The notes under the pieces were generated by a model. The model saw nothing but the letters and a program-made list of their open reading frames with translations, had not been told where the DNA came from and ran no database searches. DNA of 64,000 nucleotides from Hominimerdicola alba 8 (GTDB lineage: Bacteria; Bacillota; Clostridia; Oscillospirales; Ruminococcaceae): positions 1-64,000 of the forward strand of contig NZ_ADKM02000008.1 of the NCBI RefSeq assembly GCF_000178155.2, written 5' to 3'. This document shows positions 6,070 through 8,010 of this stretch, in pieces (the first letter of the stretch is position 1; the number at the start of each line of letters is the position of its first letter). A program made the translations under genes and the position numbers.

Positions 6070-8010
6070 CTATGGCTGATAGGTGTAGGGGCTTTCACTG
6101 ATATTTCCTTTCTTTTCACCGCCAATTATTACATCGCCGCAATAACCGTCACTTCCTACACCGATGCTGTTGGGTGCATTTGTGCCCTTAGTGGCAGTTA
6201 CCTTTGTTACAGTATTTGCAATAGTGATATTACCGCATGAACCATTTGTGCTACAGCCGATGCCAGCCGCATAATTACCGCCTGTTGCGGTTACAGTACC
6301 GCCATTGATAGTGATATTGCCGCATGAACCACCCATGCAATTGCCGATGCCAGCCCCATAATAGCCGCTTGTTGCGGTTACAGTACCGCCATTGATAGTG
6401 ATATCACCGCATGAACCATGGGAACCGAGTCCGATGCCCGCCGCAGACTCGCCGCTTGTTGCGGTTACAGTACCGCCATTGATAGTGATATTGCCGCATG
6501 AACGTCCATAACCGCTTCCGATGCCCGCCGCAGTCATGTAGTTTATTGCGGTTATAGTACCGCTTTCAATAATTATATTACCGCAAGATATATTATAACC
6601 GCCGCCGATGCCTGCACCGTAACGACTACCTGCAGCAAGCGAGCCGTTGCCATTAATGGTGAGTGTCTTGCCATCAGGCACATATATACCGGGATAATAT
6701 TCATAGAAGCCTTTCACCGAGTTCTCACCCTCAAGTATGATAGTGGCATCACCGTTCGGTGTTATGCCAGCCCACGGGTAATTGCTATTATTCGCACCGT
6801 TTATCACTGCATTTTTCAGTGTTATAGTTGCACCGTCAGCAACGGTTATCTTGTAAGGCTTTGTTTCGCCGTCAAGCGTGCCTGTCAGAACATCACCGTC
6901 CTGCGCTTCATAGTTTGCTGTCAGTGCCGAAAGGTCAACGATATTATACGATGTTTCCACAGATGCAGTAAAAGTAACAGTATCGGTATAACTGCCTGCG
7001 GGCATGCCCCTGAACGGTGCGACATCAACGCCTATCTTCTGAGTAGCGGGCGTTTCGCTGAGTTCTTCAAATTCCCACGAAGTATTTTCTTCACCCTCTG
7101 CGCTGTTCTTCAAAGTGTAGTCTATCTTCTGTGTGTTGTCCGACTGATTTACCAGTGCAAACTCACCGTCCGACTCAGCATTCACCACCAGCTTCCTGCC
7201 GTCAGCCAGCTGACCTGTCACCGAGATATCGCCTATCTCGTTCCAGCCCTCGTTCTGAATGTCAAAACTTGCGGGTATGGTGAGAGTGTAATCAGAAACA
7301 TTGTCAACAGCGACAGCCTCTATCATAAATCTGCTGTTGAACGAATCAAAGCTGATGGTGATGTCAGAAGTCTTATCAAGGTCAAAGGAGATATTTGAAT
7401 CATTTCCCGCCGACTCGTCTATATCGAGCCATTCATTCAGCAGTACTTTCTTGGTAGCAGGATAACCGTAAGAAACGTCCCATGTGCCGTCCTGTGCAAA
7501 TTTGAACTCATAACCCTCGCCCGCAGGAACAGCGGGATAACTTATAGTGTAAATACCGTCAGCGTATGTCATCTTGTTTTCAGCACTTGCGACATTCCAC
7601 GATTCGCCGTTCACCCATGGATTTCCGCTTGCGCCGTTGCCCGCAATGTAAAAATCGTGCGTTGCGACATTTCTTAGTACAAGATGAAGAGTTGACTCTT
7701 TCTGAATATTGTAATCGGCAAGTGTGCGGTTATCTTCAAGCTGTTTGCCCGCAAAGATAAGTCGCTGTTGGTCGGGCGGTATCCCCTCTTTATCCTGAAT
7801 TTTAGCCTTGACATTTTCAATAGAGTCCGATGGCTCAACATCTAATGTTATAGTTTTGCCTGTCAGTGTTTTTGTGAATATCTGCATTGCAGATGCCGAA
7901 AGGATAAAGCCCCCCAACACACCGCCGCCGCTCATATTCGCAGGCACAACTCCCGTCACAAGGGTGAGTGCCAGCGCAAAAGTGATGGACTTTTTCCACG
8001 CATTTTTCAT
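6070..8010 (-). CDS. Secreted protein with an N-terminal eukaryotic-type ubiquitin domain and C-terminal Cys-containing beta repeats
   Basis: 646 residues from the ATG at 8008-8010 (AGGAGG eight bases upstream; an ATG 15 codons earlier lacks a site). A signal peptide is 1-41, ending in SASA, so signal peptidase I would leave Met42 first. Residues 42-113 match residues 1-72 of human ubiquitin with only five differences by my reading (V5T, E16D, T22S, G53N, S57A). All seven ubiquitin lysines and the Leu8/Ile44/His68/Val70 patch are kept; the LRGG tail is missing and the chain runs on as NVATHDF. Next come a beta domain resembling an X25/starch-binding-like fold (about 117-230), an Ig-like or linker region (about 235-350), and about six repeats with AGIG and [13 protein letters not shown] motifs (about 440-620), likely a beta helix. 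Secreted, with no membrane anchor seen. Function unknown; binding of host or protozoal ubiquitin-pathway proteins is inference. Confidence 0.93.
7672..7887 (-). other. Ubiquitin domain segment within the secreted fusion
   Basis: Encodes the 72-residue ubiquitin core from Met1 (codon 7885-7887) to Arg72 (codon 7672-7674). Landmarks in order are [40 protein letters not shown] and STLHLVLR. E16D and S57A are substitutions also seen in protist or plant ubiquitins, which hints at a eukaryotic donor; this is from memory, not a search. Confidence 0.95.

What the first reader, a model, noticed from the sequence alone, without database searches (positions are those of the whole stretch)
6070..8010. 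A near-perfect eukaryotic ubiquitin at the front of a secreted bacterial protein
Residues 42-113 differ from residues 1-72 of human ubiquitin at only five positions by my reading, keep all seven lysines and the Leu8/Ile44/His68/Val70 patch, and are joined in frame to a bacterial signal peptide and large beta-rich domains. Eukaryotic ubiquitin is almost absent from bacteria; the known case I recall is the secreted ubiquitin of Bacteroides fragilis. A rumen ciliate, fungal or plant donor is plausible. Whether this protein is already described I cannot say.
Basis: partly seen in the sequence, partly recalled or inferred. Interest (0 to 1): 0.95.

Follow-up and report, generated by a model that had tools for sequence, protein, structure and literature searches.

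The report
Bacterial surface protein headed by ubiquitin
A rumen bacterium makes a protein with a secretion signal whose front end is an almost perfect copy of the eukaryotic protein ubiquitin, and related ubiquitin-fronted proteins turn up in several unrelated groups of bacteria.

Summary
On the minus strand, 6070-8010, an intact 646-aa gene encodes a signal region, ubiquitin residues 1-72 (67/72 identical to human: V5T, E16D, T22S, G53N, S57A), an X25 domain, a pilin-like beta-sandwich and a beta-helix. It lacks the LRGG tail needed for conjugation. It is not contamination: a sister genome carries it beside the same neighbour, and Ruminococcus albus 7 carries relatives, one on a complete plasmid.

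It is not isolated. Of 504 candidate stretches in a genome collection, 404 encode relatives, some of them eukaryotic contamination. In 81 of 106 distinct ubiquitin ORFs read, a signal-peptidase-like motif sits directly before Met1. Downstream parts include autotransporter barrels (17 of 83), SLH (6) and sorting signals. Codons match each host (r = 0.89); no E2 enzyme was found in 34 chosen carrier genomes. Ten paper searches listed no description of this group.

Best reading: a surface-displayed, non-conjugatable ubiquitin head that binds ubiquitin-recognising proteins, most plausibly of protists. The domain's identity is near-certain; the function is inferred (about 0.4). Rivals: BfUbb-like antagonism, or a passive cap.

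The parts
8156..8184 (-). promoter-like site TTGAAA-17-TATAAT with TG before the second hexamer
   Evidence: 11 of 12 matches; consensus only
8019..8024 (-). Shine-Dalgarno AGGAGG, 8 nt before the ATG
   Evidence: read from sequence
6070..8010 (-). 646-aa ORF: signal region, ubiquitin, X25, pilin-like module, beta-helix (stop codon 6070-6072)
7888..8010 (-). residues 1-41, signal peptide region ending ...LSASA; cut before Met1 inferred, an earlier cut (after VPA, residue 24) not excluded
   Evidence: sequence; homologues with the motif directly before Met1. My heuristic did not flag the window itself because its hydrophobic stretch ends 19 residues upstream
7672..7887 (-). ubiquitin domain, residues 42-113 = ubiquitin 1-72, 67/72 identical to human
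7342..7605 (-). X25_BaPul_like (pullulanase X25) domain, residues 136-223
   Evidence: Pfam PF22058, 1.6e-8; 58% identical over 120 aa to a ubiquitin-less R. albus protein
6946..7308 (-). YT(L/V)TIPA ... AG.YTDTVTF module, residues about 235-355, predicted pilin-like beta-sandwich
   Evidence: alignment A4, AF2 model with block pLDDT 88-95 over its core, Foldseek to CfaB, CsuA/B and other chaperone-usher subunits
6073..6858 (-). beta-helix, residues about 385-646
   Evidence: PF18889 8.9e-18; AF2 strands from a single-sequence model, block pLDDT 48-95, mostly above 65
5985..6024 (-). intrinsic-terminator-like stem, 17 pairs
   Evidence: consensus only

Best explanation
SHOWN from sequence: a complete Ruminococcus gene for a protein with a signal region and a near-identical eukaryotic ubiquitin (residues 1-72) as its first folded domain, fused to extracellular-type beta domains and lacking the conjugation tail. 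It is one of a patchy, multi-phylum set of bacterial proteins with a signal peptide built the same way, many with surface-attachment domains. INFERRED: after export the ubiquitin becomes the exposed N-terminal head of a surface protein and works by non-covalent binding to ubiquitin-recognising proteins, most plausibly of protists or other eukaryotes that bind, engulf or host the bacterium. It cannot be joined to substrates by its own tail. In Ruminococcus the head has been put on a resident family of proteins carrying a pilin-like module, in an arrangement that resembles a two-domain adhesin (binding head plus pilin-like stalk).
For: Secretion and placement: by my own heuristic (hydrophobic stretch plus signal-peptidase-like motif directly before Met1), 88 of 121 ubiquitin matches, or 81 of 106 distinct ORFs once duplicates are removed. 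Surface: of 83 proteins scanned (E up to 0.001, only the commonest 25 families shown), 17 have an autotransporter beta-domain, 6 SLH, 3 IPTL-CTERM (4 in NCBIfam), 4 a midcut-by-XrtH match, 1 a T9SS sorting signal, 2 SpaA, 2 SdrD_B. Conjugation not used: exact LRGG in 8 of 87; E2 family PF00179 in 0 of 34 carrier genomes that I chose, while the same search rings in 2 of 11 records holding ubiquitin without a signal peptide. Residence and constraint: ubiquitin GC3 follows downstream GC3 (r = 0.89, n = 75); median pS 0.88 against pN 0.10 over 3741 pairs, and ubiquitin dN below downstream dN in 20 of 22 hand-picked pairs. All seven lysines are kept in 73 of 88; L8/I44/H68/V70 exactly in 71 of 88, with aliphatic swaps in 84 of 88. 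Insertion into a resident family: ubiquitin-less paralogues with a like signal region and the pilin-like module in the same genome; a ubiquitin-less X25 protein in R. albus. Pilin-like fold: CfaB E 2.5e-4, CsuA/B E 3.1e-4, TMt 0.53-0.63; the only profile hit in the PDB is CsuE, E 2.7, not significant. Near-human ubiquitin is not active in the BfUbb assay: bovine ubiquitin had no activity on the B. fragilis strains tested.
Against: No binding partner, expression or protist effect was tested. The Ile44 patch is not more conserved than other exposed sites (p = 0.43; site lists recalled), so the data show whole-domain constraint, not a binding face. The main set is the best 80 of 404 by similarity to the window, which inflates conservation; less selected profile hits include domains down to 51-65% identity. 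In two pairs ubiquitin changed faster than the downstream part. The pilin-like matches have low TM over the whole model (TMq 0.32-0.34) and rmsd 4-7. Extracellular display gives no obvious access to cytosolic ubiquitin receptors. No anchor was recognised in the window protein itself, so display rather than release is inferred.
Confidence: 0.4

Rival explanations
1. A weapon against other bacteria, as with BfUbb of Bacteroides fragilis: the secreted ubiquitin domain binds an essential target of related strains and stops their growth.
For: The one studied secreted bacterial ubiquitin does this: as little as 250 ng of synthetic mature protein gave an inhibition zone, and 13 of 40 strains were inhibited (PMC5705921, passages). 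Same logic: signal peptide cut before Met1, no terminal GG. Patchy presence: 4 of 29 in the genus.
Against: Bovine ubiquitin, identical to human, had no activity on those strains even at a much greater dose (PMC5705921), and the window's domain is close to human ubiquitin, not to BfUbb (63% identical to human). A bacterial target gives no reason to keep about 90% identity to the eukaryotic protein in unrelated phyla. Most relatives scanned are larger fusions, some with cell-surface anchors, not free diffusible proteins. Other bacterial targets are not excluded.
Confidence: 0.18
2. A passive structural cap: ubiquitin is kept at the N-terminus because it is small, very stable and protease-resistant, with no specific partner.
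For: Constraint is spread over the whole domain rather than one face. Ubiquitin is an exceptionally stable fold (recalled). It is paired with many unrelated downstream domains.
Against: A pure stability role should tolerate surface changes; much of the ubiquitin surface is mutation-tolerant even in yeast (PMC4862753, passages), yet with synonymous sites near saturation the bacterial copies stay at a median of 66 of 72 identical to human (inflated by how the set was gathered).
Confidence: 0.22
3. An inhibitor or acceptor of host ubiquitination: once in a eukaryotic cytosol the domain occupies E1/E2/E3 or is itself ubiquitinated on its lysines or Met1.
For: All lysines kept in 73 of 88; BfUbb inhibits ubiquitination in vitro (PMC3352274, abstract passage). 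Short forms with a signal peptide in the family of Dyella end exactly in LRGG (4 of 10 loci), which would be conjugation-competent.
Against: The window copy has no LRGG; no delivery system into host cytosol was looked for.
Confidence: 0.1
4. Contamination, misassembly or chance match.
For: Several other loci in the collections do look like eukaryotic contamination (polyubiquitin in L028; E2 in two such genomes).
Against: Bacterial Shine-Dalgarno, promoter-like and terminator-like sites; same upstream sigma-factor gene (95% identical) beside the homologue in the sister genome; annotated relative on the complete R. albus plasmid NC_014824.
Confidence: 0.01

Closest known systems
BfUbb (ubb) of Bacteroides fragilis (PMC3352274, PMC5705921; passages seen)
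   Same: Signal peptide cut so that the mature protein starts at ubiquitin Met1; no terminal GG; bacterial, secreted, eukaryote-like.
   Different: BfUbb is a free 76-aa protein, 63% identical to human; here 93% over 72 residues, as the head of a 646-aa multidomain protein. Antagonism was shown for BfUbb, nothing is known here.
'ubiquitin family protein' RUMAL_RS21475 on R. albus 7 plasmid pRUMAL01 (WP_013483628.1)
   Same: Signal peptide, ubiquitin, YTVTIPA module; same genus; ubiquitin 90% identical to the window's.
   Different: Shorter (246 aa), no X25 or beta-helix; sits in a cluster of YTVTIPA proteins. Automatic annotation only.
Eukaryotic ubiquitin (PF00240)
   Same: 67/72 identity, all lysines, Ile44 patch.
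   Different: Behind a signal peptide, no LRGG, no E2 found in the own genome or in 33 other carrier genomes searched.
Chaperone-usher pilus subunits and tip adhesins (CfaB, CsuA/B, CsuE)
   Same: Predicted fold of the YTLTIPA module; a binding head on a pilin-like domain resembles the architecture of tip adhesins (recalled).
   Different: No significant sequence match (CsuE E 2.7); Ruminococcus has no outer membrane for an usher (recalled); no assembly genes shown.

Membership tests
Ubiquitin family (PF00240) | profile match over the curated cut-off, full beta-grasp length | tested here: met
   102.1 bits against cut-off 25.4, profile 1-70 of 72
Functional (conjugatable) ubiquitin | C-terminal LRGG exposed after processing | tested here: not met
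   R72 is followed by NVATH
Functional (conjugatable) ubiquitin | cognate E2 enzymes in the same organism | tested here: not met
   PF00179 in 0 of 34 genomes searched, own genome (98.8% complete) included; nothing rang in that call, but the same search rings in 2 of 11 records. Completeness of 26 of the 34 is not told
BfUbb-type secreted bacterial ubiquitin | signal peptide directly before ubiquitin Met1 | tested here: inconclusive
   ASA motif directly before Met1 and homologues agree, but the window's hydrophobic stretch ends 19 residues upstream and no signal-peptide predictor was available
BfUbb-type secreted bacterial ubiquitin | free mature protein of about 76 residues | tested here: not met
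   533 further residues follow
BfUbb-type secreted bacterial ubiquitin | inhibits related bacteria | not testable with these tools
   needs an assay
Chaperone-usher pilin | Ig-like pilin fold | tested here: inconclusive
   Foldseek E 2e-4 to 5e-4 for the six matches at or below 0.001; TMt 0.52-0.63 for CfaB and CsuA/B, TMq only 0.32-0.34; PF05229 below cut-off on one operon neighbour
Chaperone-usher pilin | chaperone and usher genes alongside | not tested
   no family search for chaperone or usher genes was run
Autotransporter (type V) | C-terminal PF03797 barrel | tested here: not met
   absent from the window protein; present in 17 of 83 scanned set members

The most novel reading that the evidence does not exclude
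Bacteria of many phyla have repeatedly taken eukaryotic ubiquitin, put a signal peptide in front of it and mounted it as the outermost head of their surface proteins using whatever anchor their lineage has. It is held near eukaryotic identity because it must be recognised as ubiquitin by protists or hosts: a widespread, overlooked class of surface ubiquitin mimicry. In Ruminococcus it acts as the tip of a pilin-like surface fibre.
Probability: 0.25. Interest if true: 0.95.

Novelty: new variant of a known kind. Interest (0 to 1): 0.82.

Why it matters
Ubiquitin is treated as a eukaryotic hallmark; the 2011 BfUbb paper calls it a unique homologue, and the 2017 paper says most bacteria make no eukaryotic-like ubiquitin. 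If a set of bacteria export near-perfect ubiquitin on surface proteins, the case of B. fragilis stops being a curiosity. It raises a direct, testable question: who reads ubiquitin outside the cell? It also offers natural non-conjugatable ubiquitin fusions as binding tools, and a caution that ubiquitin in metagenomic bins is not always contamination.

Tried and rejected
Contamination or misassembly: rejected. Divergent bacterial beta-grasp protein: rejected (67/72 identity). Conjugation system in the bacterium: no E2 found (control); E1, E3 and deubiquitinases were not searched. Single origin of all bacterial signal-peptide ubiquitins: not supported; starred branches force at least 8 label changes, but only 72 columns and three eukaryote rows were used, and the bootstrap had not settled. 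Special conservation of the Ile44 patch: tested, not found (p = 0.43; lysines p = 0.14). Phage carriage: no match in 50,697 phage records; 9 viral-contig loci exist, but they may be misclassified bacterial or eukaryotic DNA and were not pursued. Plasmid carriage: 3 of 72,556 records, one of them R. albus. A full-length fold without homologues was poor before residue 386 except within the ubiquitin domain, though Foldseek still finds ubiquitin in it (TMt up to 0.87); one alignment placed paralogues wrongly over ubiquitin, so only residues 114-375 were folded with homologues; the X25 part stayed below pLDDT 60. The viral fold library gave one match at E 0.001 or better, to a Bacillus phage G protein, not followed.

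Paper searches: in the listings (not every hit was listed) I saw only BfUbb papers on secreted bacterial ubiquitin. I opened passages of PMC3352274, PMC5705921, PMC10892293, PMC12853789, PMC4862753 and PMC4378268; the last, on Babela massiliensis, concerns secreted ubiquitin hydrolases, not ubiquitin. Preprints and most subscription journals are not held, so absence in print is not shown.

Rows dropped: five duplicate loci (L001, L093, L094, L111, L112) and five without a start codon in range (L015, L033, L036, L044, L074) before the family scans; L002 and L006 were also left out, giving 83 scanned. The 121 matches include duplicates and several matches in one ORF; one search gives 106 distinct ORFs, 81 flagged. 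Loci added to the 'secreted' set by hand although the heuristic had not flagged them: L002 (same DNA as L007), L003, L039, L045, L086, L099 and the second L076 copy; the window dropped out there as a duplicate of L001 and was put back. L003 is a copy without an intact signal peptide. The 26 dN/dS pairs were chosen by hand and are not independent; two failed for naming reasons and two had no downstream part to compare, leaving 22.

Full report
WHAT IS THERE. The ORF at 6070-8010 minus is 646 aa and starts at an ATG preceded by AGGAGG. A promoter-like site lies at 8184-8156 and a 17-pair terminator-like stem at 6024-5985. Its order is: signal region (1-41), ubiquitin 1-72 (42-113), X25 domain (136-223, 1.6e-8), a YTLTIPA module (about 235-355), and a beta-helix (about 385-646; PF18889 8.9e-18). 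The tail LRGG is missing. This is the only PF00240 match in the own genome of 4.05 Mb.

NOT AN ARTEFACT. A sister genome carries the homologue (79% identical over the ORF) beside the same sigma-factor gene (95% identical). Ruminococcus albus 7 has three PF00240 matches (handle G002, which I identify from the matching plasmid place); the complete plasmid pRUMAL01, NC_014824, carries one annotated 'ubiquitin family protein'. R. albus KH2T6 has one (L075). Between the window and its sister the ubiquitin codons differ at 8 places, 5 of them silent.

RARE AND PATCHY IN ANY GROUP. PF00240 matches: 4 of 29 genomes of the genus, 11 of 297 of the family, 7 of 391 of the class, 4 of 177 of a verrucomicrobial order, 10 of 197 of the family of Dyella, 7 of 197 of the family of Saccharibacillus. 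Two of the 7 and one of the 10 are below the family cut-off. All these searches are centred on a carrier, so they are not unbiased frequencies.

BUT SPREAD OVER MANY GROUPS. Of 504 pattern-matched stretches in genome contigs, 404 encode relatives; only the best 80 were returned. Some are clearly eukaryotic (polyubiquitin in L028; E2 genes in 2 of 11 records with ubiquitin lacking a signal peptide). Most that I read are not: by my heuristic a hydrophobic stretch and a signal-peptidase-like motif end directly before Met1 in 88 of 121 matches, or 81 of 106 distinct ORFs; the window itself is not among those flagged. By record title the set covers Pseudomonadota, Bacillota, Verrucomicrobiota, Bacteroidota, Actinomycetota, Cyanobacteriota and others; many are bins whose labels may be wrong. 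Records that bear a strain name and no MAG label cover four phyla, for example Dyella, Saccharibacillus, Cohnella, Conexibacter, Paracidovorax valerianellae, Rhodoferax lacus, Pseudohaliea rubra, Pseudovibrio denitrificans, R. albus, and the complete genome of Verrucomicrobia IMCC26134 (titles; a Prochlorococcus record that I take for a single-cell genome is not counted).

WHAT FOLLOWS THE UBIQUITIN. Of 83 proteins scanned (E up to 0.001; 25 of 57 Pfam and 25 of 34 NCBIfam families were shown), 17 have an autotransporter beta-domain, 6 SLH, 5 Glug, 5 Flg_new, 4 fn3, 3 IPTL-CTERM (4 in NCBIfam), 4 a midcut-by-XrtH match, 2 SpaA, 2 SdrD_B, 1 a T9SS sorting signal. These include export and surface-attachment devices of different lineages. 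Exact LRGG follows R72 in 8 of 87. Of ten loci from the family of Dyella (L146-L155), four encode short proteins with a signal-peptide-like start that end exactly in LRGG, three show a domain that ends in LRL before the stop, two have no signal-peptide-like start and one was too weak to read. In L029 and L070 the gene follows a repeat protein with a signal-peptide-like start, 60% identical between the two. E2 (PF00179) was found in 0 of 34 carrier genomes that I chose.

LONG-RESIDENT AND CONSTRAINED. Ubiquitin GC3 tracks the GC3 of the downstream part (r = 0.89) and locus GC (r = 0.89) over 75 loci. Over 3741 pairs, median pS is 0.88 and median pN 0.10. In 22 hand-picked pairs with an alignable downstream part, ubiquitin dN is below downstream dN in 20 and above it in 2 (L004-L006, L035-L037). 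Against an over-reading: the set is the most window-like 80 of 404 plus profile hits; identities of 51-65% occur among the profile hits; saturation between distant taxa could also reflect repeated captures; and the Ile44 patch is not specially conserved relative to other exposed sites (p = 0.43; lysines p = 0.14; site lists recalled).

ORIGIN. On 72 columns the window falls in a starred group of 17 rows (98/86), all of the signal-peptide type and mostly clostridial, with Sphingomonas canadensis and a bin labelled Synergistaceae inside. Signal-peptide ubiquitins as a whole are not one clade; starred branches force at least 8 label changes. The bootstrap had not settled and columns are few. So several transfers or much shuffling are likely, and the donor cannot be named. 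In Ruminococcus the head seems to have been added to a resident family: the own genome has ubiquitin-less paralogues with a similar signal region and the same YTLTIPA module, and R. albus has a ubiquitin-less protein whose X25 domain is 58% identical to the window's. Loss in the paralogues is not excluded.

THE STALK. The YTLTIPA module models well (block pLDDT 88-95 over its core, 13 sequences), and Foldseek places it with chaperone-usher pilus subunits: CfaB (E 2.5e-4) and CsuA/B (E 3.1e-4, TMt 0.63), though TM over the whole model is only 0.32-0.34. A profile of the module finds only CsuE in the PDB, E 2.7, not significant alone. In R. albus the ubiquitin gene lies among several YTVTIPA proteins and a membrane-anchored partner that has lipoprotein-like relatives beside the paralogues in the own genome and its sister. 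A binding head on a pilin-like domain, amid similar single-domain proteins, recalls a fibre with a tip adhesin. This is inference; in the window the module is internal, followed by a beta-helix.

HOW IT MOST LIKELY WORKS. Step 1, export by a signal peptide: supported by sequence, not tested. Step 2, ubiquitin as the N-terminal head outside the cell: supported by homologues; in the window itself an earlier cut of the long signal region is possible. Step 3, binding to ubiquitin-recognising proteins without conjugation: inferred from near-identity, loss of the tail and absence of E2. The main rivals are a passive cap and antagonism among bacteria, shown for BfUbb (PMC5705921 and PMC3352274, passages). 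The same mBio paper reports that bovine ubiquitin, identical to human, had no activity on the B. fragilis strains tested even at a much greater dose; that counts against antagonism by a near-human domain, though only for those targets. A later study of BfUbb (Jiang et al., Nat. Microbiol., seen only as a reference) was not read; I recall that it names a bacterial target.

KNOWN OR NEW. Automatic annotation calls the R. albus protein a ubiquitin family protein. The listings of ten paper searches showed no description of a surface-fused ubiquitin class; the 2011 paper states that ubiquitin had until then been found only in eukaryotes. Preprints and most subscription journals were out of reach. 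I rate it a new variant of the BfUbb kind.

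Noticed in passing
window 10266-13171 minus, with 13196-15177 minus: Two adjacent nitrogenase component-1-type genes (PF00148, 2.6e-61 and 1.3e-73) beside an ORF that looks like a permease by eye and an NMT1/THI5-like binding protein: a possible nitrogenase-like reductase with its own importer.
   Followed up: no
L029 6758-7870 and L070 6702-7883: In two Dyella genomes a repeat protein with a signal-peptide-like start (60% identical between them; weak NHL and DUF4394 hits in one) lies directly before the short ubiquitin gene on the same strand.
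   Followed up: partly
L112 1383-1934; L139 5762-6220; L145 5828-6319: A conserved membrane-anchored or lipoprotein-like family (the R. albus member has no Pfam match) lies beside YTVTIPA protein clusters in Ruminococcus; candidate assembly partner.
   Followed up: partly
L143 4903-5697 minus: A third R. albus 7 ubiquitin copy begins at ubiquitin Met1 without an intact signal peptide and ends in a sorting-signal-like tail; ORFs that look like transposases by eye lie nearby.
   Followed up: no
L062 and L072: Two ubiquitin ORFs each, about 235-249 aa without signal peptides, in bins labelled Bifidobacterium and Acidimicrobiales; they share a TGVV(T/S)YQ extension; origin unclear.
   Followed up: no
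NZ_CP077771.1 864532-864708 and CP076682.1 832935-833108: Two Pseudoalteromonas shioyasakiensis plasmids hold diverged (48-51%) ubiquitin-like stretches inside proteins annotated as Ig-like or tandem-95 repeat.
   Followed up: no
L087, L091, L092-L094: Ubiquitin genes with a signal-peptide-like start on contigs classed as viral in IMG/VR; may be misclassified bacterial DNA.
   Followed up: no
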